Shown here: positions 7,630-63,990 of the stretch, piece after piece
Position numbering within the stretch: the stretch's first letter is position 1
Layout of the letters: each line of letters starts with the position of its first letter
Origin: Limnomonas spitsbergensis
Taxonomy: Eukaryota; Chlorophyta; Chlorophyceae; Chlamydomonadales
NCBI GenBank assembly: GCA_037349105.1
Contig: JAYJMM010000079.1
Location: 1,426,001-1,490,000, forward strand
Direction: 5' to 3'
DNA length: 64,000 bases
Notes under the pieces: model-generated
Databases searched by the model: none
Told to the model about the DNA's origin: nothing
Seen by the model: only the letters and a program-made list of their open reading frames with translations
Made by a program: the position numbers and the translations under genes

Positions 7630-10600
7630 TTACCCCCCCCCTGCCCGCAGCTCCTCCACTCGGGCTTGGATGCGCAACAGCAGTGGATCATCGTCGTCAT
7701 ACGCACCCGTTGCCAGCAGTTCAGCCCGCCGGCTCAACAGCCGCACCACCTGCACACACACACACACACACACCCAGGCACAGGGGTCAACGTTGAGAGA
7801 TCGAAACCCGCCGCACAATCTTCTCTCTCCCCGTGTCTAGGTCGCCAGGTTCCATGTTCCTGCCCCCTCACATAGGAGGGTGGCATGGCTGCACCATGGC
7901 CCAGGATGTGCATGGTAGCTGGAATTGAGCCTAGTCATTCCCTACCAGCCCCACGTGGCCGAGCGTTCAGCAGGGCCCAGCGGGTATGCACCGTTCTAAA
8001 CACACCCAGTCACACACACAGTGACCTTCTTTTACCAGCCTTTTGACTATCCCTTGACTATCCTTTCACTTTCCCCCCTTTCTGACCCATAGTTTTTGTT
8101 TTTTCTGCCAACCGATTAGTCGGGTGCCCTCGCAGCCCAGCCTTTTGAGCAGGCCCTAGGGGTGCAACGTCATTGACACACAAAATGACAATTGTGAAAC
8201 AGTGATACCCATGGTGTGAACGCTGAAGTGTGAACACGGAGAGGAGTGTGAGGAAAGTGATGAGTGGGTGGGCTGATGGCCACAGCACCTAGATATCCAC
8301 ACAGCCTTGAACTGCTACATTTTAGTGCTCTGGCTGCAATTCAGTTCTGTCAAGGCCGGGGGCCAGGAAGCCTGGATCTGCAAGCCCTTCTGCTTGTGCC
8401 ACCGGCTTTAAGTCGGTCCATCGGCACAGAGGTTACAACTGCCCAGCGGCCAACTCAAGGTGGTCTGGTGCTCAATGAAATAGACACTCCTCTGCACCCA
8501 CCTCCACAGCCACGGCCTGAGGCAGGCCCGCCTCCCTTGCCACACTTTTTTCTCGCCAGGCTGGCGACAGCGATGACTGGTCCTGCCGTGCGGCCTGCCT
8601 CGTGTCGTCCTCATCCCCTGGCGCTGCCAGAGCATCAGTGCCCTCCTTGGCGGGCCGCAGGGGTGGAGGCGAGGAGGAGGAGGCGAGGCGTGATGGTGCG
8701 GCAGCAGAAACCAGGCGCTGCCCGCCATCCCCTGCGGGACGATGCTGCGGGGGAGAGGAGACACGGGCGGAAATCCCAGACGGAAGTATGGAGGCCTCCA
8801 CACTTCGGTCTGCAGAGGCCCTTAAGGCTACAGGAGAACCGCGTCCCTCCTCCCTGGTAATCCAGGCGGTGTTTCCCTCACGCTCCGGCTGTGCCCTCAC
8901 GCCCGATCCCCGCGCTCCATCATCAGGCTCCTGCACCGCCGATGCCCCCGCCCCCACTCTCGCCCCGCTGACGTTGCCTCTGGAGGGGGAGTTCCCTCCC
9001 GGCGGGGAGACCTGGGCGAGGGCCGCGGCCTTGAGGGCCAGCAGCTGCTGCCGCAGGTCAGCAAGCTCTCCGCCGCTGCCCCCGGCGGGGTGCTGCGTCG
9101 GCTGCTGGTCCAGCATGCGGTGGAGGCCGGGCTGCCATCCGCCGCCAACAGCCCGCTGCTGCTGCTTCTTGTACAGCTGGGCCAGCTGCTCCGCCAGCTT
9201 GGTCACCTAAATTCAAAATCATTATCATGCCGTGATGGGAGCCCAGCATTGTCAATTTCAGTGCAGGCCAGCACTGTAGGTAAATAAATAAATGATCCGC
9301 CCTGAGGCATGGATTCAGGATGCCACCATTCGGCCGGATCACTGCGTAGGCTACCATACTGCCATGATTGCATCCCAGCAGTGTTCATGGTAGTGCAGGC
9401 CAGAACACGATTTAAAGGTTGCCAGGCTACCACCCCTGGGCCCATTGGGACCAAACCTTGATTGGCCTACGGTCGTTGGCCCCAGCGGCAGGCACCTAGC
9501 TACACCAGGCCCCTTGGCCGTAGGCCGTGATATAGCGCCGTAGGCCGTGATATAGCTGACTTGTAGCCAAATCATGTAGCTGAATTGTAGCTGAATGATG
9601 GAGCTGACTTGAAGCTAAAATGTAGCGTGGTAAATGAGACGGGTAACCGGTACCCAACATCAGAGACATTCAAAGCGTGTAACACGAAAGACATGAAACA
9701 TAGTATACAGGGTGGGTCACCCATTGCTATATGAACCAATCATGCTCCCTGAGGCGTGGATTAAGGAAGCCGCCCGTTAGGCCGATGCCATGGATCAATG
9801 ACGTAACACCTCTGGGCCTCTGCTCAAAAAGGCTCGGCCGCGTGGGCGCCTTACTAATAGGGGCAGAACAATAGGATGGAAAAGGCCGTTGCTATGGGTA
9901 GGCTATATCCCCTTAGATGCGGAGCTTGACCGTGGCATGAATACATGACACACTCCATGTACGCGGACTGTGGTCATTGTGGCCATGTTCCGCATCCTCA
10001 ACATCAAGATTGTTCCTTTACATCAAGATTGCACCTCTGCATCAATATTGCAACTCAAGTCTTAGCCCTGCCATCCCACACGCCCTGCACTTATAGCCCT
10101 GACAGCCCACCTCTCCTACACTTATAGCCCTGCCATCCACCTTTCCTACACTTTCGCCCTGACAGCCCACCTTTCCTACACTTATAGCCCTGCCATCCCA
10201 CTTAACCTACACGTTTAGACCTTCCATTCCACATTTCCGCACTTTCAGACTTGCCATCCCACCTTTCCTACATTTTAGCCCTGACAGCCCACCTGTTCCA
10301 CATTAAGCCCTTCCAGCCCCCTTCTTTTGCACTCTTAGCCCTGTCAGTCCACATTTCTACACCTAAGCCCCTGTGCCTACACTTTAGCCCTGCCAACCAC
10401 CGCTGCCAACCCACTTTTGTCTGCACTTCTAGCCCTGCCAGCCCACCTGTTCTACACATTTACCCTTTGTACCGTCATTTACCGGTGCGCCTCCCACAAC
10501 AACATTCATGATTTCGTTTCTGCCCATTCAGCTCACCTGCGTGCCTATCACACTTAGTCACTCGGTCCAGCTTCGCATTCTCTGCCCTATCAGCCCACCT

Positions 10601-13600
10601 GCAATTTGTACGCCCCCTTGGCCCTGAGTGCCCGCCCGGCCCGTTCCTCGGCCCGCGAGGCTGCATCCCGCGCCTCCAGCAGCTGCCGGTGAAGAACAGC
10701 CTCATCACTCGAACGATGAGCATCCCTGTGGGCAAGAGCCGAAACACAATTAAAAATTCAAATCCAACGCTTTTTATCATGAATGCATAGCAGAGTTGAA
10801 TTCAAAATCCAAACCATCACATCCTCCTGAGCTCCCCCCCCCCTCTGAATGCCTGCTCGAGGGAGGCATGGAAGTTATTAACAAGAAACTGAATTCGAAT
10901 TCAAAACCTTCCTCACCTCTCGAGCGATGCAAACTCCTGTTCAAGCGAAGCGCAGCAGGTCTGACCAATAATCTGGTTTCGAAATTCAAAAGTCCGAACC
11001 CTCTTATCCTAGCTACTTTCCTACCTACCTAATTACCTAAAAAAAAATCAAACAATTTTACCCTAATTTCCTACCTCCTCAACCTGAAGGACGCAAGTGC
11101 CTCCTCAAGTAAAGCATAGAAAACAAATCGAAATCGAATCTGAAATTCAACTCCTCCCTCCCAACCTGGAGGACGCAAAAGCCTGCTCGAGCGAAGCGTA
11201 CCAAGTCTCAGAAAGATAGGCTTGCAAACGAATTCGAAATTCAAAATTCAAACCCTGCTCCACCCCACCTGAAGGATGCAAACGCCTGCTCCAGCGAAGC
11301 GTAGCGTGCCTCCGTCACCGCCAGGCGCTCCCCCTGGGCCTGCTTCTGTCGCATCACCTCTGCGCTCCTGTCTCTCTCGATTTCCAGCTGGTGCTCGCAT
11401 TCAACCTGCAACCGAACACATTGGACGTGAGAGGGGCACAGATACATATGGATTGGGATGGATCGGTACTTCTCTTATGCTAACTTCCTAGCTGGTGCTC
11501 AGGTGCTGACAATCAACCTGCAGCCAAATACAGCGGATCTTAACTTTGTGTCACATTGGTAATCCAGTCCCGCTTAAGTTCCCCTGGCATGGGGGGGGCG
11601 GCTCGGGAGAGGTACACCTTTCTCGCATTGGGCCTGCCCCGGGGGTTCACGAGGGGGTTACTGGTAAGACTCGACCAGACAAGCGTTGTTTCACAAAAAG
11701 GTTATAAGGAAGAATCACAGTGCACAGACATTTTACGCACAACACAAAATGCATTGTCCATATGGACACGAAAGCCTGCAGTTCCACCCTGCTGGGGAGC
11801 TCAGGCAGAACCAATTAGCTCCGAATTACAATGAAACAATGCAACTGGAAACTCGAGAGGCGGGCCCAAGGGTCAGCCCTATCATTTAGTGTACCGTACC
11901 CGTCCTATTATCAGTCCATACTCTGCAGTCGTCTAACAGGCCTTTTCCCCTCACATTTTCCTTGCTCCCCCCCCATGGAACACCCAGCAGGACTGTCCTT
12001 TACTTGCTATCTGCCTCGTTGTCCCAAAGGCAGCATCCAGCCATCCACCGACATGCCTCTGCCGCCACAAACGCAGCCACCTCCCACCTTCATTTATTTA
12101 ATCTGCCCTCTTCCTCGTACACCAGGATGGCAGCTGCCACCCACCTATAGCCTTCCTTCGCCTCATCCTGTCCTGCCACAATTGCAGGCCACCCACCAGC
12201 TGCCACAATTGCAGACCACGCACCTGTAACCTGCGGACAGCCGCCTCCATCATACGAGCAGTTACCACCCACCTGCCACCTGCGCATAGCTGCCTCAGCT
12301 TCCATCATACAAGCACCTGTTGCTTCCCAGCCACCTGCGCACAGCCGCCTCCACCTCTCAACTTCCCTATGCCTTCTGATTTGCTGCAATCCCACCACAA
12401 ATGCAGCTGCCACACACCCACCTGTTGCCTGCGCACAGCCGCCTCCGCCCCTGTCACACAGGCAGTGGCCACCAGCCTGCAGCCTGCTGACAGCCGCCTC
12501 AGGCTTTCAACTTCTTTCTCCCTTTTTTTGTGTGCTGCTATCCTTATACATACACAGTGGCCACCCACCTGTAACCTGCGCACAGCCGCCTCCGCCTCCA
12601 TCATACGGGCAGTATGATCCCGCTCCAGCTCCCGGCGGCGGCGCATCACTGACTCCTCGCCTAGAACCTGTTTAAAAAAAACGCACATTGGTGGCATTCA
12701 AAGTTCAAGATGAATGACAACGGTTGCGTCGGTTGAATTGGTCCACATTTTCCGTATTCCCCTGCCCTCTGTTTTCAACCAGAAAACCCGCCACCGGGAT
12801 GAATACCAGCGAGGCGCAGGTGAATTTGGGCCCATGATTTCGGCTCTGACATGCAGCACCGATTCCTTGCCAATAAACTGGTCGGAAATCGTGGAACAGC
12901 ACAAGGAAGTGTAGGAGGGTAGAGAAAAAATGTAGGAGGATCAAGTGTCAGCAAGTGTCAAGTGTCAGCAAAGTAAGGCAGCATGATGCACAAAGTACTT
13001 ATGTATGCAGGAATGCTCTTCTTTGTGAGCAGGGACAGTGCACAGCTATGGACGGACTGGCATTTCGGCGATGAAGCACATCAGTGGGATGAATGAAAGA
13101 CACGTTCTGGATCTGAATCGCATTGTAATGCTATCGAGTGCAAGATTTGTCAGCATAGTTTAGCGTGGGATCGCGTCATCACCGTGACATCATCACACGA
13201 AGGTGACATCACCACCTGATCACACCATCATCACACTACCATGACCCCAAACATCACTCACCAGGCGCCTCTCCCGCTCCTCCATCACCGCCAGCATTTT
13301 ACGCGCCTTGTCCTCCACCGCAGCGTACTCCACCTTCACGGCTGACACCTGGGCGCAAGGGCAAGAAAGATCCAAGATATATCTCAAAATATCTACAGGT
13401 CAGATAAATCCAAGAAGTATTCGAAATGATACAAGATAGTACCTTGATTGATCCAAGAAATATCATAAAAGTATCCAAGAAAGATCCAAGTAAGAGGACG
13501 GTCTGGGTTTGGGAGCAAGGAAAACACTCCAGTCTGCTCGATTTTTATCGCCTGCAACTGGAAGAACAAGACATACACAAGAATAAAGCCCCATGGGTGT

Positions 13601-16600
13601 TTAATTTCCGGCGTACAAAAGACTGAGACTGCTTTTACGGGCCCTGTCCTCCACTGCAGCATACTCTCCTCGTCAAGGCTACCACCTGGACTCTTGGGCA
13701 GGCATCAGCAGAGCCTCGAGGGGGGGGCACAGTGTGACCACAGAATGATGGGGGGGAGTGGATGAGGGGGGAACTAAATCAAATCAAATGAAAAGGGGGG
13801 GAGGGGTCCAACAGCTTAAAAATGGGACAATTGGAGAAAAAATGCAGGTATGCTCCACTTTCACAGCTGGCACCCGGACATATGGGCAGGTATCAACCAA
13901 GCCTGAGGGGGGGGGGGGCAACAGTGGAAGAAACTTAAGGAAAACAATTTGAGAAAACTGTAGTAGACTTACCTTCACGGCTGGTACCTGGACACATGGG
14001 AAGGCATCAACCAACTAACCCAGCCTGAAAGAGGGGTCCAGCAGTGAAAATAGCTGCTGAAACAATTGGGCTAAACAGCAAAAAATAGTCAAAAAAATGG
14101 CTAAACCGGAGGAGAACTGAACTAGACTCCAGCCTTTTGGCTGTCACCTGGACACATAAGAATGCTCGGCCAAGCTTGAGAGGGGGGGCCTACAGTGAGA
14201 AAAGGTACAGAACAAATTGAGGAGCGCTTTGGGAAACTAAAGAAGTACTGCGGAAAAAATTACCAAAGAAGCTTAGGAAGCACTTGAGAAATCCAACAGA
14301 AAACGTCAGAAGCTTTTAAGAAAAACTACAGGACAAGTGCAGAAAACTTAATTAGACTCAAACCTGACGGCTGCCACCCAGTCTTCAAGTGTGCAAGATC
14401 CGATGCCTGAGGTCAAGTGAGGTGTACTCCCAGTATACTCTCCCTTTTCAGCGTCAGGTACATGCTAGTGCAATGACCTCTGCTTCCCGCAGATTCTCCC
14501 TCCGCTGACGGCTGCCACCCGGTCCCCAAGCATGCAAGGTCCGATCCTGAGGGCTGTTCCTTCTCAGTGTCTATAACACTCTAGCACAATGACCTCCGCT
14601 TCCCGCCTCTTCTCCCGCCGCCGCCACTCAGACTCCAACCAACTAGACTTTCAGCGTCAGGTACATGGTAGTGCAATGACCTCCGCTTCCCGCAACTTCT
14701 CCCGCCGCCGCCACTCAGACTCCAACCTGACGGCTACCAACTAGACTTCAAGTGATCCTGAGGACTGCTCCCTTTTTCGAGAATGAAACACACCAGTGCA
14801 ATCACCTCTGCTACGTCTGTTCCTTTCCTTTCTCCTCTAGCCTTATGTTTCTTTTCCTCCCGCCAGACAGTTGGGCGCCCATGCGAACGAGCCTTTTCAG
14901 CATGGCCCAGCGGTGCAATGTCATGGACTCACCTCCGCTTCCCGCAACTTCTCCCGCCGCCGCCACTCAGACTCCAAAGCGGACATCCGGGCCGCCTCGC
15001 GCTCGCGCAGCTCAGCCCGCCAGCGTGCCTCCTCAGCTGCGGGGGGCAGAGGAGGAGGGTCAAAGAGAGGAAGGAACCACACACATACGGAAGGACGCTT
15101 GCGCAGCTCAGCCCGCCAGCGTGCCTCCTCAGCTGCGGGGGGCAGAGGAGGAGGGTCAAAGAGAGGAAGGAACCACACACATTCGGAAGGACGCTTGCGC
15201 AGCTCAGCCCGCCAGCGTGCCTCCTCAGCTGCGGGGGGCAGAGGAGGAGGGTCAAAGAGAGGAAGGAACCACACACATACGGAAGGACGCTTGCGCAGCT
15301 CAGCCCGCCAGCGTGCCTCCTCAGCTGCGGGGGCACACACACACATACCTGAGGAGGCCTCGACTTGTTCCGGAAGCAACGCAGCGTGAACACGGAGGTC
15401 TATCCAGAGAAGGTCCGGCACATCTCTGTCAGGCAATATCAGTCATGAAAAATTGACGCCAAGGAGCCCCCCCTACTTACTGCAGGCCCCTTTCACCCTA
15501 AGCCCTGAACCCTTTTACACATCGCCCGCACAGGACAATACAGTGAGATGAGGTTATGAGGTGCATTATGATTTGTGCTGCTGTGCGCCTGCCACTAAAA
15601 AAATAGTTGTTTCTCAGGCTTTCCAGTTGCCTGCCTCTCAAACTCAACTTCCACATATCAGAAGGAGTGTTTAGGTACCAAGATTCCGGTGGGTGTTCTG
15701 ATACTGCCCCCCCCCCCCCCCCAGCTGCACGCCAGAATGCCAAATCTCATCCCCGGGTCCCATCTGGTTTCCACACTTCGAGCTCAAAGGCAGCTCGCCT
15801 TGATTCCACACGCCAAGCTTTCTGAAAGCTCAACCCATTTCCACACTTCAAGCTCCCAGACGGCTTACCTCGTTTCCACACCTCAAGCACTCAGACAGCT
15901 CACCTCGTTTCCACACTTCAAGCTCCCAGGCAACCTGGTACTCAGGGGGCACTGAAGCGGAGGCAGCTGAGGCAGCCGCCAGCACAGCCACGCTCTCCTC
16001 CCTCCCTGTCCCACCTCCGCCCCGCCCCGCCGCAGCCCCTGCAGCCGTGCTCTCCTTCCTCCCAGCTCCTCCGCCGCCCCTCCCCGCACCACCGCCTGCT
16101 CTCCCCGCAACTCCGGCGCCCATCCTCTCGCCTCCGTCACCCCTTCCTGCCACCCCTGCAGCTGCGCCCGTACCCCACGCCGCTGATTCCATAGGCACTA
16201 CATAGCCTGGCTGGGCGGGCAGTACGGCAGTACTGGAAGGCGGCACATAGGGCTGCGGCATGTCAGCTGGGGCTGGGCTCTCTAGCGCCACTATGGCCCT
16301 CACCATACCCACCTACAACAGCAAAAGCAGCAGAAACAACAGCAATGTCAGGAGAAACAGCAGCAGTACCTGCAGCAGCATGAACATCCGCAACAACAGC
16401 TGCAACATTAGCAGCAGTAATATTCTCAACATCAGCAGCATGAAGAGCATTAAAGCAGCAGCAGCAGTATAAAAACGTCAGCAGCAGCAGCAACACCAGC
16501 AGCAGGAGCAGCAACGGCAGCAGCAACGGCAGCAGCAGCAGCTGTAGCAGCAACGACAGCGGCAGCAGCAGCAACATTATCAGCATCAGCATCAGCATCA

Positions 16601-52700: not shown

Positions 52701-55700
52701 CTGTCTGGCTTTCTTGGTGCGGCTAGGTGTGAAGGGTGGGATGAAGGGATGAAGGGAGCGGGCTGAGTGGACCTGCTGTGGAGTGACTGGAATAGACCCG
52801 GCAAGGTTGCATGTGGACAGGGTCGTTCTGGCTACGCAGGTTTGGCGAAGGGTTAGAGGGGGGGGCTGAGTGGGGCTTGGGGTAGGGCTTAGAGGGGCTG
52901 AGGTGGGGGGACTAGGTGGGGCTGAGTTGGGGCTGAGGTGGGGGGGCTAGGTGGGGCTGCTATGGGGGGACTAGGTGGGGCTAAGGTGGGGCTAAGGTGG
53001 GGCTGAGGTGGGGCTTGAGCGGGGCATGGCTGAGCATAGCCAGCGTGGTTGACATGAACCCCTTTCCCCATGTGCTGCCATCACGTACTGCCATCACGTA
53101 CTGCAACTGGTACTGCCATCACGCACTGCCATCACGAACTGCCAACGTGCATGGTCGTAATGAGCTTCCTTTATGTACTGCCGTTATGGTATGATGACCA
53201 TGACCCCTTTCTCACGTACTGCCTCCCTTGCTTGGGCCCTTGGCGTAGGCGAGAAGGACGTATTGAGTTTGTTGAAACGGCGGGCGCTGATGATCCTTAT
53301 GGGTATGACGGCAAAGGAGCAGGTGGGTCAGGGTCGTTTCAAATGCACCTTTCATGGGCAGGCAGGTGGGTGCAGCAAGTAGGGCAGGACAGGCCGTGCA
53401 GGTAGGTGCGGCGGTGTGGGCAGGACAGGGCGGGCAGGTGGGTGAGGTGGGGTGGGCACTGGGCAGGACAGGGGAAGGGGGGTCGGGGTTGATGCAGGAG
53501 TCTGTGAAGGGCTCAAAAAGAGAGACTTGATGATCCTCATGGGTATGACGGCAGGGTAGCAGGTGGGTTGGGGTTGTTGTTTCAATTGCAAATTTGATGG
53601 GCATGTGGGTGGGTGCGGCGGGGTGGGCAGGACAGGGGAAGGAAGGTCAGGGTTGTTGTTTCAATCGCACCTTTGATGGGCAGGTGGGTGGGTGCGGCGG
53701 GGTGGGCAGGACAGGGGAAGGAAGGTCAGGGTTGTTGCTTCAATTGCAAATTTGATGGGCAGGTGGGTGGGTGCGGCGGGGTGGGCAGGACAGGGGAAGG
53801 AAGGTCAGGGTTGTTGTTTCAATTGCAAATTTGATGGGCAGGTGGGTGGGTGCAGCGGGGTGGGCAGGACAGGGGAAGGAGGGTCAGGGTTGTTGTTTCA
53901 ATTGCACATTTGATGGGTAGGTGGGTGGGTGCGGCGGGGTGGGCAGGACAGGGGAAGGAGGGTCAGGGTTGTTGTTTCAATTGCAAATTTGATGGGCAGG
54001 TGGGTGGGTGCGGCGGGGTGGGCAGGACAGGGGAAGGAGAGTCAGGGTTGTTGTTTCAATTACACATTTGATGGGCAGGTGGGTGGGTGCAGCGGGGTGG
54101 GCAGGACAGGGGAAGGAAGGTCAGAGTTGTTGTTTCAATTGCACATTTGGTGGGTGGGTGCGGCGGGGTGGGCAGGACAGGGGAAGGAAGGTCAGGGTTG
54201 TTGTTTCAATTGCACCTTTGATGGGCAGGTGGGTGGGCGCAGCAGGCAGGTGGGCGCAGCAGGCAGGTGGGTGCAGCAGGCAGGTGGGTGCAGCAGGCAG
54301 GTGGGCGCAGCAGGCAGGTGGGTGCAGCAGGCAGGTGGGTGCAGCAGGCAGGTGGGTGCAGCAGGCAGGTGGGTGCAGCAGGCAGGTGGGTGCAGCAGGC
54401 AGGTGGGTGCAGCAGGCAGGTGGGCGCAGCAGGCAGGTGGGTGCAGCAGGCAGGTGGGTGCAGCAGGCAGGTGCAGGTGGGTGCAGCAGGCAGGTGGGTG
54501 CAGCAGGCAGGTGGGCGCAGCAGGCAGGTGGGTGCAGCAGGCAGGTGGGCGCAGCAGGCAGGTGGGTGCAGCAGGCAGGTGGGTGCAGCAGGCAGGTGGG
54601 TGCAGCAGGCAGGTGGGCGCAGCAGGCAGGTGGGTGCAGCAGGCAGGTGGGCGCAGCAGGCAGGTGGGTGCAGCAGGCAGGTGGGTGCAGCAGGCAGGTG
54701 GGTGCAGCAGACAGGTGGGTGCAGCAGGCAGGTGGGCGCAGCAGGCAGGTGGGTGCAGCAGGCTGGTGGGCGCAGCAGGCAGGTCAGGACAGGGCGTGCA
54801 TATCTGGGGACGGTGTGGCGGCCTGGCTTGGTGTGACGGCAGGCGTATCATGGGATGGCGTGAATACCTTGTCGTTTGGACCACCGGCGGTGGGCTTGTC
54901 CAGTTTTTACGATGGGCCCTGTGGGGGGTACCCAGCCGAGCCCCAAAGGTGCCTGGCTACCTGCTAAAATTGTACTTCTCAGTTCTGAGCTCTTGCGTGG
55001 ATCTGCCGCATTGTTATCTGCGTATTTCTAGGAATTCTGCAACGTTTCTAGAAATGCAACGGTGAGCAATCAGCATTTTGTGTACCTAGCATCTCTTGCC
55101 ATGGCAGTAGGAAAGGAGCAGCAGAAAAATGTGCACGGACACTTTCCTGTCATTTCTTTGCACCTGACACACTTCCTTTCACCATTTCACACACATGTGG
55201 TTCAGGAGTTTTACCCTGACTTCAAGGATCCTGAGCCATACCACGGACAATTTTCTGCCACTTTGTCTAAAACCCTTATAGGAGGCTGCAGAGGCAGGTC
55301 CCAAGGGCGCTAAGGCTGGGCTGAAGAGGCAGCGCACGGAGGCAGGCCCCAAGAGTATGGCAAAGGACGAGAAAGGGGCCCAGCAAACGGAGGAGGCGGA
55401 GGGTGAGGAGGAGGAAGAGGAAGAGGAGGAGGATGAAGAAGGGGAGTCTGATGAGGAGGAGGAGGGGGAGGAGGGAGAGGAAGAGGAGGAGGACGAGGAG
55501 CTACCTGAAGACGAGCGTGAGCTGCTGGATTCAGATGACAGCGATAAGGTATGAGCTAGGGGGGGAGCTTTATGGGCATGTGTCCTGAAACTCTTGTGAC
55601 CTGAGACCAAGTCCCTTCCCACATTCTTATAATAGTGTGAGCATCTTATCCTGGTAAATAAAGCAAACAAACGTCGGGGAAACTGTGCGTGGGTCCACCC

Positions 55701-56153
55701 ACGCCCACCCAGTGGGGCAAACGACTGAACAATGTGAGGGTTCCTCCACCCACGCGGGTGAACGCTAGGGGTACACCATCTGGTGCACACGCGTGGGTGT
55801 CGCCACGGTGGGCAGCCCCGCGTGGTGTGACCCAGAGATGTACTCATATGGGTAACTTGAAGCTGAGATTGTGACATGGGTCGAGGTATATTTTCCGCCT
55901 GGGCACAACTGCCTTATGGGACATGCAATGTATTTTGTTGAGTTAAGTACCTAGTGCCCCAACCCCTTAGCATCGCTCCCATTGCATCTTGTTCGCATTA
56001 TAACGTAGTCCTCTGAGACCCATCTCCAGCCCACACGCTCTTTCAGACCTGGCTATACCTCGCATGTTTTTCCCTCCTCAGGTGGGTTACGGTGAGGTGG
56101 ACTTCGATGATGGCCCTGGGGAGGCGCACGACAGGCTCAAGCCACACAAATAG
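40743..56153 (+). CDS. SET-domain protein lysine methyltransferase (SETD6/RKM4-like)
   Basis: Sixteen exons in matching phase: 40743-40834, 41312-41410, 42296-42397, 43101-43201, 43688-43884, 44293-44452, 45327-45388, 46873-47193, 47727-47795, 49095-49172, 50017-50083, 50529-50710, 52139-52283, 53249-53322, 55282-55548, 56082-56153 (2088 nt, 695 aa). The SET fold runs [14 protein letters not shown] (about 29-42), [22 protein letters not shown], the S-adenosylmethionine/catalytic DMINHS (about 208) and [20 protein letters not shown]. The C-terminal Rubisco-LSMT-type substrate-binding fold follows ([42 protein letters not shown]). Family members methylate lysines of ribosomal or other proteins; the substrate here is unknown. 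Exon 8 inserts an Ala/Pro/Lys-rich loop and exon 15 a long acidic Glu/Asp tract. Intron 6 uses a GC donor. Many of its junctions are repeated in the flanking introns. Confidence 0.92.
41185..41250 (+). repeat. Decayed copy of SET-gene exon-2 acceptor and start
   Basis: GGCCGCAGGGGTCTCATGGC..TGCTATCGCTGAGAGC mirrors the true acceptor and exon start GGCTGCAGGGGAGTCGTGGC..TGATATCGCTGAGGGC at about 41304-41350. Confidence 0.82.
41385..41925 (+). repeat. Array of SET-gene exon-2 3' end plus donor, six copies
   Basis: The true exon end CCAGATCAAGAG^GTGGGTGGAT (41410) is followed by copies at about 41530-41575, 41692-41735, 41778-41815, 41845-41870 and 41885-41915, each with GATGCACC.. or GCAGACCAG-like exon sequence and a GTG-rich donor. 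GGATGGATGGGTGG simple sequence lies between them. Confidence 0.88.
42655..43145 (+). repeat. Array of SET-gene exon-4 acceptor plus start, four copies
   Basis: The true junction CATGCACAG^GGGTGAGGCTTC (43101) encodes [13 protein letters not shown]. Preceding copies start at about 42658, 42798 and 42950, each reading GCTTCTTCGTTCTG..CCCTACCTGGCGGCA with increasing divergence, separated by TGTAGCTGAA motifs. Confidence 0.92.
43202..43425 (+). repeat. GGGGAGAGGGAGAGGAGG purine tract after SET-gene exon 4
   Basis: Uninterrupted purine-rich repeat starting at the exon-4 donor and filling the first half of intron 4. It creates long Arg/Gly/Glu and Pro/Leu/Ser frames that are not genes. Confidence 0.88.
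43455..43687 (+). repeat. Decayed copy of SET-gene exon 5 upstream of the true exon
   Basis: ACCATTGAGGGCTCCGGGGA..GTCCTGTTTGAGC..CGCATGTCTGGCC at about 43501-43575 parallels the start of exon 5 (ACTATTGAGAGCGCCGGGGA, from about 43692). Repeated CTCCCATCTGGCCCTCCC blocks lie around it. Confidence 0.88.
44430..45090 (+). repeat. Array of SET-gene exon-6 3' end plus GC donor, about six copies
   Basis: Exon 6 ends GCAATGAAGGCAG^GCGAGTGTG (44452). GGAGTTCTCAACATTCTTTG..GATGAAGGCAG^GCGAGTGTG recurs at about 44500-44550 and 44580-44630, then in weaker forms at about 44695-44740, 44795-44835 and 45045-45085. Every strong copy keeps the GCGAGT donor. Confidence 0.92.
45238..45306. repeat. AACAAGATCC/AACAAGATCT tandem repeat
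   Basis: Six 10-11 bp units immediately before the SET-gene exon-7 acceptor. Confidence 0.9.
46590..46890 (+). repeat. Copies of SET-gene exon-8 acceptor plus start, four
   Basis: The true junction GTGCGCAG^CTGCTGCAGACGTACGGG (46873) is preceded by GTGTGCAGCTGCTGCAGACC at about 46778 and weaker copies at about 46695-46725 and 46628-46655. Confidence 0.82.
48429..48487. repeat. 22-bp inverted repeat (hairpin) in SET-gene intron 9
   Basis: Arms 48429-48450 and 48466-48487 pair with one G-T type mismatch and a 15-nt loop; the arm contains ATGTAGCAACATGC. A third, direct copy of the left arm starts at about 48515. Confidence 0.88.
48785..48893. repeat. ATTAAATGTTGCANG tandem repeat
   Basis: Alternating AAATGTTGCAGGGTGCAT and AAATGTTGCACGCAGCAT units, four to five copies, in SET-gene intron 9. 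Confidence 0.82.
49095..49915 (+). repeat. Exon-like array: SET-gene exon 10 in about seven copies
   Basis: The first copy (49095-49172) is the phase-correct exon. Copies at about 49205-49280, 49318-49390, 49432-49505, 49540-49613, 49640-49732 and 49832-49905 each have a CAGGGAGCGGGGGG-type 5' side, a GCAGCCGCTGTC core and a CAG^GTGAGAG-like 3' side. The unit is about 110 bp. Most downstream copies have lost the reading frame. Confidence 0.9.
50395..50805 (+). repeat. Partial copies of SET-gene exon 12 on both sides
   Basis: GCAGAAGCAGCAGCAGAGAA..GAGGCAACCAAGCAGGCAGC at about 50420-50465 resembles the exon's AAGCAGCAGAGGAT..GAGGTAGCCAAGCAGGCAGC. TTGGAGGAGGAGGACGACAG..CTCAGGTCGTGGCTGTTGCC at about 50747-50790 resembles its 3' end. 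Confidence 0.85.
51565..52175 (+). repeat. Array of SET-gene exon-13 acceptor plus start, six copies
   Basis: The true junction TTTGTGTAG^GTGGTGGACTCGATGATGC (52139) is preceded by copies at about 51572, 51685, 51790, 51898 and 52008 that keep GGTGGACTCGATGATGCA or close variants, spaced roughly 105-115 bp. Confidence 0.93.
52255..52760 (+). repeat. Array of SET-gene exon-13 3' end plus donor, about six copies
   Basis: The true end CTACCCTGGTTCGGCTAG^GTGTGAAG (52283) recurs as CTACCTTGGTGCGGCTAGGTGTG (about 52353), CTTTGTTGGTGCGGCTAGGTG (about 52422), CTACGTTGGTGCGGCCAGG (about 52512), then about 52637 and 52710. Confidence 0.92.
53290..53570 (+). repeat. Duplicate of SET-gene exon-14 3' end and donor
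   Basis: ATGATCCTTATGGGTATGACG..GAGCAG^GTGGGT (to 53322) is copied as ATGATCCTCATGGGTATGACG..TAGCAG^GTGGGT at about 53529-53570. The second copy then seeds the 79-bp array. Confidence 0.9.
53570..54235. repeat. 79-bp minisatellite, about eight copies
   Basis: Units of GTGGGTGCGGCGGGGTGGGC..GGGTTGTTGTTTCAATTGC with an exact 79-bp period, starting from the duplicated exon-14 donor. Since 79 is not a multiple of three, the reading frame rotates between units. Confidence 0.95.
54225..54790. repeat. 17-bp minisatellite, about 33 copies
   Basis: GTGGGTGCAGCAGGCAG (with GTGGGCGCAG variants) is repeated head to tail within SET-gene intron 14. A 17-bp unit reads through all three frames as a 17-residue repeat on either strand, which explains the long open frames here. 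Confidence 0.95.
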
Positions 56154-57654: not shown

Positions 57655-57870
57655 ATACCGGAAGGAGGGGGGATCGAACCCGCCGCACGATCTTCTCTCT
57701 CCCCCCCAAAAGAGAGCCGTCCATGTTTCTGCCCCCTCACATAGGAGTATCCCATGGCTTCACCATAGCCCAGGCTGTGCATGCTACCCGGAATTGAGCC
57801 TAGTCATTTCCTACCAGCCCCACGTGGCCGAGTGTTCAGCAGGGCCCAGCGGGTATGCACTGTTCTAAAC
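57655..57870 (+). repeat. Interspersed ~210-bp repeat (B-box family)
   Basis: Contains GGATCGAACCCGCCGCACGA (reverse complement carries the GGTTCGATCC B-box-like motif) and ends GGGCCCAGCGGGTATGCAC. It is a direct repeat of 57055-57255. Confidence 0.82.
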
Positions 57871-58646
57871 ATACCGGAAGGTGTGGGTTGGAGGCATACA
57901 AGACGGCGAAAGAAGAGCCAAAACGGCAAAAGGATAGCCAAGACAAAAAAAGAAGAGCCAAGATTACCATTGGCAACTGCAATTTGGATCCTGAACACTG
58001 CATGGCAACGCCGGGCAATGGAGTTGGTACGTGGCAAGGTGAGGGTGAGGCGGTGGGCTTCCCATGGCCCATGGCCCAAGCAACGGGGCTTCCTGCACCG
58101 GGTCCCCACAGTCGAAGGTGGTTGTGTTGCTAAATTATAGCTGAAGCGCATTGAAGTACACAATGGCAGCAAATGTCTGCATCCATCAGCAACGTGGGCT
58201 TGACACGGTATGTGACATGCGGGCTGTTTAGGGACATTTGGTGAGAATGAGGGACAGAGGGAGATCAGAGGCCAATCATGGTTATTGGTGTTATGAGGCC
58301 GAGGGGGGCATGGTCAGCCGGGGAACTGGCCGGGGAGGGGAGGGCCCTCGTCAACAAGGTTGGGGTCTGCAGCTCTAGATCTTTGCGTTGTTGGTGTGAA
58401 GGGTGTGGAGATCCCTTCCATTTTCATTTCCAAACCGTTCGACCCGATCGCAAACTCAAACTCACTTCTTCGTTTACGGAGACGCAGAAGCTCAAAATTC
58501 GAGCGCCAATCGTTCGCCGCTGAGGCTGGCAAACTGTCTTGTCAGACGATCTCCCTCGTTGAAACCGCTCTTCCGGGGTGCCTTTCTCTCCGTTCTCTCT
58601 TGTAGACATCATCGAGCTAAATTTGGCAACCTCGTTCGTATCAGAA

Positions 58647-61600
58647 ATGCAATCGTCTCTCTCAGCATGTCGTTCCGGCTCCCGGATGCAGGTGGGACAG
58701 AGCAACCATTGTTGCTACTACTTAATTAAACAGTCTCCAATTTTCTCTCTTCGCACGTTATAAAAGCTTACCAAACAAAGCTCGCAGCATCATGCATCGG
58801 CCTCTGAACTTCTGCTATTTTGCACGATCCGGGACAAGTGTTCGCAGCATGCCAGGCTCACCCTCTTTACCAAAATAACAATTTGGCTTGTCTCTCCGCT
58901 CCCTGCCCTGACGCTGACTGAGATCACCCGTCATTCCCCGCGCAGGGCTTGCGCAGAAGTCAAAACGCCTGTCTCGGCTTGCCCCCCGCGCGAGGGTCGG
59001 TGATCTTAGCTGCCTTCGGATCCGATGTGGCTGTCAGACCCTACACAGCTCGCAAAGGCGATAGCCTCGAGAGCATCGCACAGAAGCGGGGTGAGGGCAA
59101 TAGGGCGTTTCGGGGCCCAGGTGCTGTGGTAGGGTTGTTTGAAATGCTGGAGACAGACATGCATGATGACTCAACCAGGAGATAATGGTGCGAAAATGCA
59201 CATCTACCCCATCAAGACTGCCATCAGGCAGGTTGTGGATAACGTGACAAGGTGTCTGTCACGGGATTGAAAAGGGGTGGGTGATGTGACAGGTGAGGGT
59301 TGGGCAGCCGAATGGCTGCAGGCAGTTTTACTTGACTATTTAATGGTCATTTACCAGTGCAACCCGCCCGAACATGTCTTCCACTAGATCAGGTATAAGT
59401 GAGGAGACAGGAACATAATGGAGACAGAGTGACGAGACAGGGTAGTATGGTATGAGCTACAGGCGTGAGGATCAGAGCAGAGAATGAAAAATCTGCATGA
59501 GCCATGCATGGGTTGAACTTGATCTCTGACCGTGCCCAGATCTCGACTAGCCTAAATCCAGTGACCCAGTCAGCAGGGCTTTCTGCACCAAGCCCTGCAG
59601 GACGTAAATCAGGCTGCGAGGCTATCGCTGAATTGTAGCTCAAGCACACTTACTTAAGCAAGGGTGATGTATGCTGTCACATCTGGCTGTGCAACTGCGC
59701 TTTGCTATCTGATGCTTTGGTGGAGTAAGGGCAGGGCGGCTTGATGAAAGAATGGGCAGGGGGCCGGGCACAAGTGGGAAGGCCAAGCAAAATGTCAGAT
59801 ACCTGAGCCCTTACAAGTTATGACCTCACGTGTGCCACCTGCATCATTTTGTATTTTAGTGGGCGCTAGGCTGGGCACTTGACACCCTTTTGCAGGCTGA
59901 TGGGCAGCCGCCACCGCGCCGAATGGGACCAAATCTGGACTGGCCAGTGGCAGGATGCCCAGGCAGCAGGGCTTGCTGCGCCAGGCCCCTCATGGCTGTT
60001 ATTGGTGATACGGTGTACAGTGCTGGCTCTGACGCTGTAAATGGGACTAAGGTGTAACGTAAGATGGTGTGTTGCAGGTAAACAGGAAATGTTGAATGAA
60101 GAACCGTAAAACATGTGTGGCACCGTAAATCCGTCACTACTGTAAATCTCCCAACACTGCTGATATTGCTGAATTGTGGCTCAAATGAAGTGAAATACAA
60201 ATACACTGACCTGTGACGTCACGCAGATATGACGGTTGCGGAGGTGCTGACGTTCAACCCGGATATCTCGCCCAGCACAAAGGCTTCGGCGCTGGAGGGT
60301 AAGAGACTTAGAGCTTCACGTTTTGGACGAAATGGATTTTGGGTGGGCATGGGCGGCTGTGGAAGGATGGAGCACTTCAATGCGCTAAAACTGACCGTGT
60401 GCAAAAGCTAGCTTCTCTAATCCAGCCTTGCGCTTGAGGCGCAGACCCTTACCTCAAATTTGAATATTGAGCAATGCTTCAAGAATTCCAAGCTCGTTTG
60501 TCAAAGTTCATTAAATAATTACCACTTGTCAAAGCCCTTCGCACCACATGCAGTGAGCTGGACCACATTGCATGCAAGGGTGTACTTTTTCCAGCAGGGC
60601 TGCAGGGGGTGGGAGAAAGAGGAAGAGTATCGAACAACGTGGTGCAGCAGTCGAGAGCTCTATTTAGTTTGAAATTTTGAACCACCTTCGGAAGGCCGGT
60701 GGGCAGACACCACTGAGACGATGGGTACCAAACCTTGACTGGCTAACGGCCTGCAGCCCTTTAAACACCAGGACTTGCAACGCCTGGCCACCCTTGGCTG
60801 TGCGCCGCTATGTTACGGAATCGTTGATAGATCACCCTGAATATTTGAATTTTCCTGAGAATACCGGTAGTATATGCCTATATGGTAATATGGTTGATTG
60901 GTTTTCCCGGCAAGACCCTAGTACTGCCGGCCAACCAGTTTCGATTTGAGGCACAAATATTCTGAACAGGTGGCTGAATTGCAGCTAAAGAATGTGTGAT
61001 CTTCCACAACCGCAGGCAAGACCATCGTACTGCCGGCCAACAAGCTCTCAATTCGAGACAAGGAGATCTTGGAGGGCATCCACAAGTTCAAGGGCCAGGG
61101 CTACCGCATCTATCCTGTAAGACGGGGTTTCGTTAGGGTTAGGGTCAGGGCTACGGCTTGAGGCTGGATTTTGTCTGGGTTGGGGCTACCGCATCTATAC
61201 TGTAAGGCCAGGTTCTGTCAGGGTTAGGGTTAAGGGCTATCGCTTGAGTCAGGGTTTTGTCAGGACTAAGGCCAGGGTTAAAGCTGCTGCATCTATCATG
61301 GAAGGTCGGGTTCTGTCAGGGTTAGGGTTAGGGCCAGGGCTAGGGCTACCGCTTGAGTCAGGGTTTTGTCAGGGCTAGGGCTAGGGCTACCGCCTTTATC
61401 CTGCAAGGCCGGGTTTTGTCAGGACTAGGGTTAGGGCTATCGCTCGAGTCAGGGTTTTGTCAGGGCCAGGGTGAGGGCTACTGCATCTATTTTGTAAGGC
61501 CGGGTTCTGTCAGGACTAGGGTTAGGGCTACCGCTTGAGGCTGGATTTTGTCAGGACTAGGGCCAGGGTAAGGGCTACCGCATCTATCCTACAAGGCCGG

Positions 61601-63373
61601 GTTCTGTCAGGGTTAGGGTTTTGGCTATCGCTTGATTCAGGGTTTTGTCAGGGCTAGGACCAGGACCAGGGCTACCGCATCTATCCTGTTGAGGCAGGGT
61701 CCTGTCAGGGCTGGGGCTACCGAATGAGATCTGTTTTATTTAGGACTAGGGCTAGGGCTTTTCAGTTGGCTAGGGAAAGGTTCATGTTGAGAGAGAATGG
61801 TTCAAGAGTTCGTGCCCAGTGCACCCTTCAGTCCTTCAAAGCCCCCTTTCTCATGCTTATGAACACCCCTACACCACCTTCTGTGCATCCCAACACGACC
61901 CAAATCTATGCTTAATCAAGCTCGTTGCCCTATCCCCTGCCCCCCTCTGCGGCAGGTGTAAGGCGGCGAGACGTTGCAGGACATTATGTCCAACCCTTGC
62001 ATGTCAGAGATTCCGACCCTCGTGTCCAACTCTTGTATGTCAGAGATTCCGCCCTTTTAACCCCTTGCCTCCCCCCTCTCTTTGCTTTAAGTGCATGTCG
62101 CCAGAGATTCTGCCCCCTCCTCCTCCCCCATCTAACCCCTCTGCTGCAGGTGCGTGCTGAAAATTCATCGCAGGGCATTATGTCCTCCCTTGGCATGCCC
62201 CAGATTCTGACCCCTTCCCCCTTAGTTGTACGTGCGTGCCGTCAGAGATTCTGACCCCCTCCCCCTCAGCTGCAAGCGTGTGCCATCGGAGATTCTGCCC
62301 CCCCCCCCCTCTTCCCCTCTGCTGCAGGCGTGAGGTGGAGAGTCATTGCAGGGCATTATGTCCACCTTCTGCATGTTCCAGATTCCGCCCCCTTCCTCGT
62401 CTGCTGTACGTGCGTGCCGTCAGAGACTCTAACATCCCCCCCTCCCCCTCCTGCAGGTGCGTTCTGGAGAGTCCTTGCAGGACATCATGTCCAAGCGCGG
62501 CATCAACCGGGAGGAGATGGAAGTCCTAAACCCTGGAGTCAAGCTGGACAAGCTGTCGGGTAAGACTGAGGCTGGCGTTGTTTGAGGGGTTTCAAGTTAA
62601 CCGAATGTTGCTTCAGGTACGATTCAGCTATGCTTCAGCTACGATTCAGCTATGATTCAGCTGCGATTCAGCTACGATTGACCTACATCATGGCTTGCGG
62701 CTGGGGGCCCCAGGTGCAGTGAACCCCGATGCCTGTGGCCACCACAGCCGGGGCTGAGTGGTGAAGTCAGCTCATGTCTTATTCGGAGTTTGATATTCGG
62801 TTAACGCTACCATGCAAAATTTTACCCAGAGGCACAACCGTTGATAGATTCCCGTACGATGTTATAAAAACTACCTCTGGCCAACAGCGATAAGCTGATC
62901 GGTCAACCCATCAGCCCAGTGGTGACGTCTCGGTCACCTAAATGAAGTGGTCTGCTGCATTTTGCAATATGCTCAGGAGGGGGCTCCTAGAAACTCTGTT
63001 TGATGGATACTTTATGGAGATGGAGGTACTGGCCTCCTGGGCTACATTCGCCAGTTCTTTCATTTGCCTTTCAGCTCATCTTCTATCGACAGGCGAATCA
63101 TCGAAAGTGGAGCCCCGCTCTTACCGACTGCCTCCACAAGCAAGGAGATGTACCCTGAACCCCGTACCCTGAACCTCAAGCCCTGAACTCCATACCCTTA
63201 ACCCCGAGATGAGGCCCTCAAGTCCACCCCCTTCTTGCTGCCCACAGGCAACCAGAAGATCAAGCTTCCCAGCAACAAGTTCACAGTGCGCGAGAGAGAG
63301 ATGCTGGGCGGCGTGCTTCCGCCCGAGTTCTTTGCGGTGGCAACCAACCCGTTTGTCATCGGTATCGGGGCAT
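58647..63373 (+). CDS. Tandem LysM-domain protein (3' end beyond window)
   Basis: Six exons in agreeing phase: 58647-58691, 58946-59090, 60227-60298, 61016-61116, 62457-62559, 63248-63373, leaving phase 1 at a GTGAGT donor, so the gene continues to the right. LysM is a roughly 45-residue fold that binds N-acetylglucosamine polymers such as peptidoglycan or chitin. LysM 1 (about 46-95): YTARKGDSLESIAQKR, EVLTFNPDI, LEGKTIVLP. LysM 2 (about 117-163): YPVRSGESLQDIMSKRG, EVLNPGV, LSGNQKIKLP. Each is followed by a similar helix (KLSIRDKEILEGI; KFTVREREMLGGV), so the protein is a two-fold LysM-plus-helix repeat. The N terminus is Ser/Arg-rich and acid-poor, like a plastid transit peptide. NPFVIGIGA at the current end may start a membrane segment. 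Start chosen as the only Met in phase ahead of exon 2. Confidence 0.87.
60900..60958 (+). repeat. Decayed copy of LysM-gene exon-4 start
   Basis: GGCAAGACCCTAGTACTGCC..GGCCAACCAGTTTCGATTTGAG parallels the true exon start GCAAGACCATCGTACTGCCGG..AAGCTCTCAATTCGAGAC at 61016. Confidence 0.88.
61085..61745 (+). repeat. Array of LysM-gene exon-4 3' end plus donor, about ten copies
   Basis: The true end GGCTACCGCATCTATCCT^GTAAGA (61116) is followed by GGGCTACCGCATCTATACTGTAAGG and many variants with spacers of GGTTCTGTCAGGGTTAGGGT and TTGAGTCAGGGTTTTGTCAG. TTAGGGTTAGGG strings are part of the unit rather than telomeric DNA. Confidence 0.9.
61940..62470 (+). repeat. Array of LysM-gene exon-5 acceptor plus start, about five copies
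   Basis: The true junction CTGCAG^GTGCGTTCTGGAGAG..TTGCAGGACATCATGTCC (62457) is preceded by copies at about 61947-61995, 62140-62190 and 62322-62372 that keep TTGCAGGGCATTATGTCC, plus shorter ones with CGTGCCGTCAGAGATTCTG. Confidence 0.9.
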
Positions 63374-63614: not shown

Positions 63615-63990
63615 TGGGTGTTTGGGGGGCGGGAGCAAAAAAAAGCTCCCGTAGGCACCGCTCTGCATGGCTCTGCTATCGCCTATCGGTGTGCAAGCGC
63701 AGCAGAGGCATCCGATGATCCGACCTAATATATTGGAGACAGGGCTCTCTAAAGGCTATGCTTGCACCTGCTGCTGCGGAGTCTTATGTTCCACCTTATC
63801 TTTTGGGGGGCGAGGGCTGCAGTAGGCACTGCTCTGCAATTCTGCGTGGCTTTGCTATCGGTGTACAAGTGCAGCAAAGATACCCAACCCAATATCTGTG
63901 AGACGGCTCTACAAATGCTATCCTTGTATGCTTGTGCCTGCTGCTGTGGATTCCAATGTTCTACTTAAATCGCTTCTCTCTGCTGCTACT
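63615..63990. repeat. ~170-190-bp tandem duplication at right edge
   Basis: GGGGGGCG..GTAGGCACYGCTCTGCA..TGCTATCGGTGTRCAAG..CTTGCACCTGCTGCTGCGGA occurs at about 63630-63775 and again at about 63805-63960. It lies in the intron after LysM-gene exon 6; I saw no further exon before the window ends. Confidence 0.82.

What the first reader, a model, noticed from the sequence alone, without database searches (positions are those of the whole stretch)
7630..63990. Splice junctions are tandemly reiterated in the adjoining introns of three genes
Seen directly: at more than 20 exon boundaries in CEP120, the SET methyltransferase and the LysM gene, the last or first 10-100 nt of the exon plus its splice site recur in the intron in 2 to more than 10 degenerate copies, oldest-looking farthest from the exon in several cases. 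The copies are junction-specific, so this is not one mobile family. Known background: tandem duplication of a segment containing AGGT can create a spliceable intron. Inference: introns here arise or lengthen by repeated local duplication across AG^GT sites, leaving fossil junctions. I know of no description of such systematic junction arrays.
Basis: partly seen in the sequence, partly recalled or inferred. Interest (0 to 1): 0.93.

Follow-up and report, generated by a model that had tools for sequence, protein, structure and literature searches.

The report
Tandem fossil splice junctions in introns
In a green alga, small stretches of DNA, often including the edge of a gene's coding part and its splice site, have been copied head to tail into the neighbouring introns, so introns grow and keep decaying copies of the exon edge; most likely this is ordinary local duplication filtered by selection, but unusually widespread and readable.

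Summary
In four rebuilt genes (39 firm introns, 78 junctions), copies of the exon edge lie in the adjoining intron at 33 of 78 junctions (104 copies), against 3 of 234 for mismatched junctions. Exon-only edge probes hit at 28 of 78 junctions, mid-exon probes in 35 of 792 tests. It recurs in kinesin introns elsewhere in the genome: 16 of 76 edges against 23 of 659 mid-exon probes. The genome is very probably Limnomonas spitsbergensis, a PacBio assembly.

Intron lengthening by local tandem duplication is supported. Intron birth by AGGT duplication is not (0 of 39). Junction targeting is not established: random intron points are duplicated almost as often (119 of 400 against 27 of 78), and a twofold junction excess in the window is absent in kinesins (1.04, CI 0.71-1.46). 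The copies decay neutrally. Best reading: blind local tandem duplication, with selection preserving the exon-edge copy. Repeat-rich introns in green algae are published; exon-containing junction arrays I did not find described in what I saw.

The parts
7627..27800 (-). CEP120 gene, 15 exons; junction copies at 13 of 26 firm junctions
25888..26659 (-). 4 copies of the acceptor junction of CEP120 exon 2 (junction at 25832)
24422..24674 (-). 3 copies of the donor junction of CEP120 exon 3 (24727)
22098..22733 (-). 3 copies by the finder (about 8 by eye) of the donor junction of CEP120 exon 5 (22820); the exon-only probe is not significant here
19642..19831 (-). 3 copies of the donor junction of CEP120 exon 6 (19916)
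17391..18324 (-). 7 copies of the donor junction of CEP120 exon 7 (18365), 50-55 nt of exon in six of them
   Evidence: unit found only here in the genome
15761..15859 (-). 2 copies of the donor junction of CEP120 exon 8 (15904)
15096..15333 (-). 3 near-identical (98-99%) copies of the acceptor junction of CEP120 exon 9 (15036), 96-nt period: the youngest-looking array
14444..14725 (-). 3 copies of the donor junction of CEP120 exon 9 (14933)
13633..14542 (-). 4 copies by the finder (7 by eye) of the acceptor junction of CEP120 exon 10 (13348)
12216..12505 (-). 5 copies of the donor junction of CEP120 exon 11 (12569)
11502..11537 (-). 1 copy of the acceptor junction of CEP120 exon 12 (11405)
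10798..11209 (-). 4 copies of the donor junction of CEP120 exon 12 (11269)
7948..8019 (-). 1 copy of the acceptor junction of CEP120 exon 15 (7749); the exon-only probe is not significant here
41092..56153 (+). SET-type (Rubisco-LSMT-like) methyltransferase gene, 16 exons; junction copies at 15 of 30 junctions
41172..41246 (+). 1 copy of the acceptor junction of SET exon 2 (41312)
41523..41921 (+). 5 copies of the donor junction of SET exon 2 (41410)
42504..43016 (+). 4 copies of the acceptor junction of SET exon 4 (43101)
43242..43382 (+). 2 copies (G-rich, among the least certain) at the donor of SET exon 4 (43201)
43499..43553 (+). 1 copy of the first 58 nt of SET exon 5 (43688)
44021..44093 (+). 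1 copy of the acceptor junction of SET exon 6 (44293)
44497..45093 (+). 5 copies of the GC-type donor junction of SET exon 6 (44452); all five keep GC
46746..46799 (+). 1 copy of the acceptor junction of SET exon 8 (46873)
47252..47303 (+). 1 copy of the donor junction of SET exon 8 (47193); the exon-only probe is not significant here
49240..49744 (+). 5 copies of the donor junction of SET exon 10 (49172), spacing about 107-120 nt, all five with GT
   Evidence: unit found only here in the genome
50378..50449 (+). 1 copy of the acceptor side of SET exon 12 (50529), 69% identical; the exon-only probe is not significant here
50751..50803 (+). 1 copy of the donor junction of SET exon 12 (50710)
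51327..52055 (+). 7 copies of the acceptor junction of SET exon 13 (52139), spacing about 107-125 nt
52350..52887 (+). 5 copies of the donor junction of SET exon 13 (52283)
53528..54229 (+). 9 copies at the donor of SET exon 14 (53322); 8 of them belong to one secondarily amplified 79-nt array
58647..63373 (+). LysM protein gene, 6 exons in the window; junction copies at 3 of 10 junctions
60909..60953 (+). 1 copy of the first 45 nt of LysM exon 4 (61016)
61183..61716 (+). 6 copies of the donor junction of LysM exon 4 (61116), spacing about 88-106 nt
   Evidence: unit found only here in the genome
61932..62364 (+). 3 copies of the acceptor junction of LysM exon 5 (62457)
31471..38335 (-). gene C (comparison gene inside the range): 7 exons, single copies at 2 of 12 junctions (35487-35554, 32697-32745), none by the exon-only probe

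Best explanation
Segments of typically about 80-140 nt (median copy spacing 107) inside genes are repeatedly duplicated head to tail, by replication slippage or unequal exchange, at places that take no notice of splice sites. Where the unit lies inside an intron it gives a purely intronic array. Where it straddles an exon edge it gives exon|intron-exon|intron: the outermost junction goes on serving, because the mRNA is unchanged, and every inner copy becomes neutral intron. Purifying selection holds the exon-edge copy nearly constant, so it acts as a slowly decaying reference, and part of the intron becomes a dated series of fossil junctions. The same process inside exons survives only in frame. 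Shown: the copies, their locality and direct orientation, no junction preference in the replication set, neutral decay, in-frame exon repeats. Inferred: the molecular step (slippage or unequal exchange) and that the outermost site is the one spliced (from reading frames only).
For: 104 exon-containing copies at 33 of 78 junctions against 3 of 234 mismatched controls. Direct orientation: inverted control 18 of 603. Random intron points duplicated in 119 of 400 against 27 of 78 junctions, Fisher p 0.42. In 38 kinesin introns the junction/interior ratio is 1.04 (0.71-1.46). How deep the best copy reaches into the exon fits random placement of the unit: median 40.5 nt, range 8-118, expected 44.2 +- 6.1, P 0.29 (32 of 33 families usable). 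Splice dinucleotides keep 101/122 (donor) and 50/62 (acceptor) bases, like their flanks (0.81, 0.79); 63 of 92 are intact. Mismatches to the exon at codon positions 1/2/3 are 16.7/14.0/21.6%, so positions 1 and 2 of the copies are not protected. Exon-encoded tandem arrays: 8 of 8 periods divisible by 3 (periods taken by hand). Copies share changes with each other (355 of 433 doubly changed sites; 159 of 229 without SET intron 14), so arrays also grow from fossil copies. Units were found only at their own locus in 260 Mb, 3 of 3 searched. Same pattern in kinesins, 16 of 76 edges against 23 of 659 mid-exon and 19 of 574 cross probes.
Against: In the window alone junctions, and also the neutral 36-70 nt inside them, exceed copy-number-weighted intron interiors (0.434 and 0.363 against 0.215; ratios 2.01 and 1.69, both CIs above 1), and pooled with the kinesins a 1.5-fold excess remains (1.21-1.84). 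In CEP120 alone junctions are hit more often than random intron points even unweighted (0.500 of 26 against 0.276 of 181). Slower decay of the exon copy and its protection from deletion could give this, but I did not model it. Blind duplication does not explain why the five intergenic stretches of the window are poor in arrays (0.040 weighted against 0.235, 0.202 and 0.096 in the introns of CEP120, SET and LysM). Gene C introns are poor too (0.068). No RNA data were examined.
Confidence: 0.78

Rival explanations
1. Splice junctions are themselves preferred sites of duplication (for example through co-transcriptional R-loops or spliceosome-linked breaks), so introns lengthen outward from their ends.
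For: Window: junction 0.434 and the neutral 36-70 nt inside 0.363 against interior 0.215, ratios 2.01 (1.56-2.58) and 1.69 (1.26-2.18); CEP120 alone 0.500 of 26 junctions against 0.276 of 181 intron points. Identity falls with distance from the exon in 15 of 18 arrays. Footprints are G and T rich on the coding strand (GC skew +0.18, AT skew -0.12, against +0.03 and -0.03 in the rest). PMC3887541 reports more repeats toward intron ends, especially in Chlamydomonas and Volvox.
Against: No excess in 38 kinesin introns (1.04, 0.71-1.46). 27 of 78 junctions against 119 of 400 random intron points. Array coverage does not fall with distance from the junction. Exon depth of the unit fits random placement. 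The identity gradient is expected of any array that grows between neighbours.
Confidence: 0.14
2. The introns were born by tandem duplication of exonic AGGT segments, and the arrays are the remains.
For: The model is established (Hellsten case as summarised in PMC4974935), and many exons here begin with GT after AG.
Against: Donor flank against acceptor flank of the same intron: 0.265 against 0.260 for mismatched introns; 0 of 39 above the 99th percentile. Most copies carry intron as well as exon, so the intron came first. An intron older than the decay time would have lost the trace, so old births are not excluded.
Confidence: 0.03
3. The copies are functional: alternative exons or decoy splice sites kept by selection.
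For: 63 of 92 copies keep the splice dinucleotide; all five copies of the GC donor of SET exon 6 keep GC.
Against: The dinucleotides are kept no better than flanking bases; codon positions 1 and 2 change at 17 and 14%; 19 of 64 copy spacings under 200 nt are multiples of three, about the third expected by chance.
Confidence: 0.03
4. Mobile introner-like elements or dispersed repeats inserted at splice sites.
For: Dispersed repeats exist in the window, and one copy abuts the donor of CEP120 exon 9.
Against: Edge probes match other introns in only 21 of 1044 tests; three array units were found nowhere else in 260 Mb.
Confidence: 0.01
5. Assembly artefact.
For: Tandem arrays can be mis-assembled; the array at 15000-15333 is 98% identical.
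Against: 94 of 104 copies are 69-90% identical. The assembly is 260 Mb in 124 contigs and fits a published PacBio assembly with reads of L50 33 kb. The pattern recurs in nine kinesin regions on eight other contigs.
Confidence: 0.01

Closest known systems
Tandem repeats concentrated in introns of Chlamydomonas reinhardtii and Volvox carteri (PMC3887541; abstract and passages read)
   Same: Introns have the highest tandem-repeat density, CDS the next; repeats are more frequent toward intron ends.
   Different: That study looked at units of 1-50 bp; here spacing has a median of 107 nt, copies are degenerate, and the unit often contains the exon edge. The passages read do not mention exon-containing copies.
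Tandem duplication across an intron-exon boundary, potato RdRp gene (PMC4974935; abstract and first of five parts read)
   Same: One duplication crosses an exon boundary and carries splice signals with it.
   Different: A single event that made a new intron through a cryptic donor; here up to 9 copies per junction, at 33 of 78 junctions, with no new intron seen.
[quoted passage not shown]
   Same: Local tandem duplication produces spliceable copies of AG and GT.
   Different: Existing introns lengthen here; no trace of origin by AGGT duplication was found (0 of 39).
Introner elements (recalled; not looked up)
   Same: Repeated sequence that brings splice sites.
   Different: Introners are one family at many loci; the arrays tested here are unique to their own junction.

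Membership tests
Intronic minisatellite / degenerate tandem array | Head-to-tail direct copies, locally confined | tested here: met
   Direct copies abundant, inverted control 18 of 603; 3 of 3 searched units local in 260 Mb
Intronic minisatellite / degenerate tandem array | Unit of 10-100 bp (bound as given in PMC3887541) | tested here: inconclusive
   Spacing median 107, IQR 84-138, of 71 spacings in junction arrays: at and above the usual bound
Green-algal intron-rich tandem repeats (PMC3887541) | Introns richer in repeats than intergenic DNA | tested here: met
   Window only: introns of CEP120 0.42, SET 0.48, LysM 0.33, gene C 0.15 against intergenic 0.075; rotation p 0.0005 for the three genes. 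Genome-wide only indirect: 15 unannotated 3-kb stretches mean 0.336, median 0.257
Green-algal intron-rich tandem repeats (PMC3887541) | Excess toward intron ends | tested here: inconclusive
   Excess in the window, none in kinesins
Intron gain by AGGT tandem duplication | Donor and acceptor flanks of one intron similar in register | tested here: not met
   0 of 39 introns
Intron gain by AGGT tandem duplication | Intron absent from relatives | not testable with these tools
   No relative genome available (G000 has no relatives here)
Introner elements | Same sequence at many intron loci | tested here: not met
   21 of 1044 cross-intron hits; three units found only at their own locus
Functional duplicated (mutually exclusive) exons | Splice sites and reading frame of copies conserved beyond their flanks | tested here: not met
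   Dinucleotide retention equals flank; codon positions 1 and 2 change at 17 and 14%
Functional duplicated (mutually exclusive) exons | Copies present in transcripts | not testable with these tools
   No RNA data here; IsoSeq exists for the inferred species (PMC11228838)

The most novel reading that the evidence does not exclude
Exon edges act as permanent seeds. Because selection never lets the functional junction be lost, it keeps re-seeding copies into the intron, so introns in this lineage ratchet longer from their ends, and a transcription- or splicing-linked duplication bias adds to it. This would make intron length a by-product of exon conservation, with each junction carrying its own dated record of growth.
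Probability: 0.17. Interest if true: 0.85.

Novelty: new variant of a known kind. Interest (0 to 1): 0.55.

Why it matters
Intron lengthening is usually put down to transposons (general knowledge). Here 42% and 48% of the intron positions of CEP120 and SET, and 33% of those of LysM, lie in local tandem duplications, and many arrays contain a piece of exon that selection holds nearly constant. That piece is a slowly decaying reference, so the divergence of each fossil can date one lengthening event. It also gives a natural test of splice-site choice: an intron may hold up to nine decaying copies of its own donor or seven of its acceptor, yet the reading frame points to the outermost one. If confirmed genome-wide with transcripts, intron growth in this alga becomes directly measurable.

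Tried and rejected
Rejected: AGGT origin, mobile elements, functional alternative exons, assembly artefact (reasons in the rivals). The strong claim of junction targeting was tested three ways: random intron points, copy-number-weighted interiors and a kinesin replication. It held only in the window. A preference for a fixed depth of exon in the unit was looked for: the first try (p 0.08) was flawed, because in 6 of 33 families the best alignment did not reach the exon; repeated with exon-reaching copies it shows no departure from random placement. A pure 'hub' model, in which every copy comes straight from the exon, was rejected: 45 of 82 copies have the exon as closest relative and copies share changes. 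Intron-intergenic contrast: strong in the window, only weakly checked elsewhere because the random stretches are not annotated.

Limits and dropped rows: CEP120 intron 4 (uncertain splice sites) everywhere; 8 of 9 copies at the SET intron 14 donor in the dinucleotide and codon counts; gene C where 'three genes' is stated. Edge probes used 100 shuffles, mid-exon and cross probes 30. TRF arrays were merged, and exon periods taken, by hand. Kinesins: 40 regions were planned, 28 obtained. In one search, 28 of 40 neighbouring exon pairs that passed the gap filter were modelled (pairs failing the filter were not printed), 10 were modelled and 5 skipped. Kinesin splice sites were picked by phase and by a matrix trained on the window's introns, so some may be off; one kinesin intron of 4.5 kb (L049) gave 26 of the 75 copies and may be mis-modelled.

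Led nowhere: pattern scans of viral and genome collections, protein-guided scan, Rfam and tRNA. Papers: 10 searches; two lists were capped (20 of 41, 12 of 416). I saw abstracts and passages of PMC3887541 and PMC3152781, the abstract and first of five parts of PMC4974935, and the abstract, passages and part 1 of the results section of PMC11228838; all others only as listings. Apart from the single potato duplication, nothing in those listings and passages describes exon-containing junction copies; subscription journals are mostly absent from that library.
Full report
What is there. The window is eukaryotic and lies at C79:1426001-1490000 of a genome of 260,226,709 bases in 124 contigs. The largest contig seen is 10,736,355 bases. 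The published Arctic snow alga Limnomonas spitsbergensis has 260,248,090 bp in 124 contigs, largest 10.736 Mb, assembled from PacBio reads, mean intron 788 bp. I infer that this is the organism; the small size difference is unexplained. I rebuilt CEP120 (15 exons, - strand), a SET methyltransferase of the Rubisco-LSMT type (16 exons), a LysM protein (6 exons in the window) and a fourth gene, C (7 exons, - strand). Names rest; the Pfam SET model itself did not reach E 0.001, and gene C matched no family. Apart from CEP120 intron 4 the joined frames are open. That leaves 39 introns and 78 junctions.

A probe of only the last or first 30 nt of exon scores z>3 against the adjoining intron at 28 of 78 junctions; mid-exon probes do so in 35 of 792 tests and probes against other introns in 21 of 1044 (edge against mid-exon Fisher p 2e-15). 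With a second finder there are 104 copies containing at least 8 nt of exon at 33 of 78 junctions (18 donors, 15 acceptors), against 3 of 234 with mismatched junctions. By gene: SET 15 of 30, CEP120 13 of 26, LysM 3 of 10, gene C 2 of 12; the exon-only probe finds none in gene C. Copy number per junction is 1-9, with a single copy at 12 of the 33. Spacing has a median of 107 nt (IQR 84-138), and identity to the functional junction is 69-99%, median 80%. Two alignments are shown.

It is not a quirk of one locus. A kinesin search of the same genome gave 139 exon matches. From 28 fetched regions I modelled 38 introns in 23 regions. Edge probes score z>3 in 16 of 76 cases, mid-exon probes in 23 of 659, other introns in 19 of 574; 24 of 76 junctions have exon-containing copies. 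The 16 hits fall in 9 regions. Three array units from the window, searched over the 260 Mb, match only their own locus, so those copies are local and junction-specific.

It is not specific to junctions. Random intron points tested in the same one-sided way are duplicated in 119 of 400 cases, junctions in 27 of 78 (Fisher p 0.42); random intergenic points in 14 of 300. In CEP120 taken alone junctions are ahead (0.500 of 26 against 0.276 of 181), in SET and LysM they are level, in gene C they are behind. Array coverage does not fall with distance from the junction. Outside the junction footprints intron DNA still has dup fraction 0.248, against 0.075 in intergenic DNA and 0.689 inside the footprints. 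Because an array multiplies intron positions but not the junction, I also weighted each interior point by one over its copy number. In the window, junctions (0.434) and the neutral 36-70 nt inside them (0.363) then exceed interiors (0.215), ratios 2.01 (1.56-2.58) and 1.69 (1.26-2.18). In kinesins the ratios are 1.04 (0.71-1.46) and 1.12 (0.71-1.62); pooled, without the 4.5-kb intron, 1.5 (1.21-1.84) and 1.39 (1.08-1.75). The depth of exon in the best copy fits random placement of the unit (median 40.5 nt, expected 44.2 +- 6.1). A junction-targeted process is therefore not established. A modest excess may follow from the slower decay and non-deletability of the functional copy, which I did not model.

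The copies look neutral. Splice dinucleotide bases are kept in 101 of 122 (donor) and 50 of 62 (acceptor) cases, like the 12 nt on either side (0.809, 0.792); 63 of 92 dinucleotides are intact. Mismatches to the exon are 16.7, 14.0 and 21.6% at codon positions 1, 2 and 3: positions 1 and 2 decay freely in the copies, and the extra at position 3 fits synonymous change of the functional exon. Identity to the exon falls with distance in 15 of 18 arrays, but copies share changes with one another (355 of 433 doubly changed sites, 196 of 204 of them in SET intron 14) and only 45 of 82 have the exon as closest relative, so arrays grow from old copies too. A change shared by all copies may also be a change of the exon, which this count does not separate. 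The same duplication seems to act in exons, where it survives in frame: the eight exon-encoded tandem arrays all have periods divisible by three.

I find no sign that introns are born this way here. If an intron arose from a duplicated AGGT segment, its donor and acceptor flanks would match in register; they do not (0.265 against 0.260 for mismatched introns, 0 of 39 beyond the 99th percentile). Most copies contain intron sequence, so the intron was there first. Very old births would have lost the trace.

Introns against intergenic DNA. In the window the contrast is sharp: CEP120, SET and LysM introns have 42, 48 and 33% of positions in local duplications, gene C introns 15%, intergenic DNA 7.5%, and rotating the track does not reach the observed difference in 2000 trials. 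TRF gives 48 arrays in 37.4 kb of intron and 6 in 15.6 kb of intergenic DNA. Outside the window I could only sample 15 unannotated 3-kb stretches (mean 0.336, median 0.257, two of them satellite-like) beside kinesin introns (0.469 length-weighted, median 0.221 per intron). That agrees with an intron bias but does not prove it. PMC3887541 reports the same ranking, intron then CDS, for tandem repeats in Chlamydomonas and Volvox, with units up to 50 bp only. Why introns and not intergenic DNA is open; dispersed repeats cover 12.0% of intergenic and 4.3% of intron DNA, so faster turnover of intergenic DNA may contribute.

Verdict. The anatomy is real, frequent and found across the genome. It is best read as blind local tandem duplication plus purifying selection, which turns exon edges into slowly decaying references and introns into partial fossil records. 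The ingredients are known; arrays of exon-containing junction copies at a fifth (kinesins, exon-only probe) to two fifths (window, finder) of junctions are described in none of the listings and passages I saw.

Noticed in passing
44453 (donor of SET intron 6): A GC-AG intron (CAG|GCGAGT); all five fossil copies also carry GC.
   Followed up: partly
3404, 9795, 14904, 26097, 29610, 30551, 30610, 56252: Dispersed element with core TCAATGACNTNACACCTNTGGGCC, eight matches with up to 3 mismatches on both strands, no exact match in viral or GTDB contigs; the copy at 14904 abuts the donor of CEP120 exon 9.
   Followed up: partly
7789-8006, 28890-29102, 57049-57259, 57672-57875: A dispersed repeat of about 210 nt in both orientations, 76-86% identical.
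   Followed up: no
2265-2394 and 7400-7529: A 130-nt repeat, 95% identical, 5 kb apart.
   Followed up: no
979-1029: Inverted repeat with 19-nt arms and a 13-nt loop, seen by eye.
   Followed up: no
31471-38335: Gene C is an internal duplication: exons 1-3 resemble exons 4-6 (by eye), and the corresponding introns still align weakly (30, 24 and 21 against shuffled maxima of 18, 17 and 15). It looks secreted, with an AFDFDNTLRV motif; its first 431 aa match no Pfam family at E 0.001.
   Followed up: partly
15985-16144, 22971-23030, 31529-31683, 31741-31789, 32207-32322, 37853-37933, 55389-55500: Tandem arrays inside exons, all with periods divisible by three.
   Followed up: yes
Introns of the three genes, junction footprints: Coding strand is G and T rich in the footprints (GC skew +0.18, AT skew -0.12) but hardly in the rest of the introns.
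   Followed up: no
L068, L074: Two of 15 arbitrary 3-kb stretches are almost wholly tandem (0.987), satellite-like.
   Followed up: no
L049, kinesin intron of 4.5 kb: The finder reports 25 acceptor-side copies, its per-junction limit; either a very large array or a mis-modelled intron.
   Followed up: no
4658-5597 (- strand): Two long open frames that look BTB-like (label from recall, not tested); almost no local duplication there (0.001).
   Followed up: no
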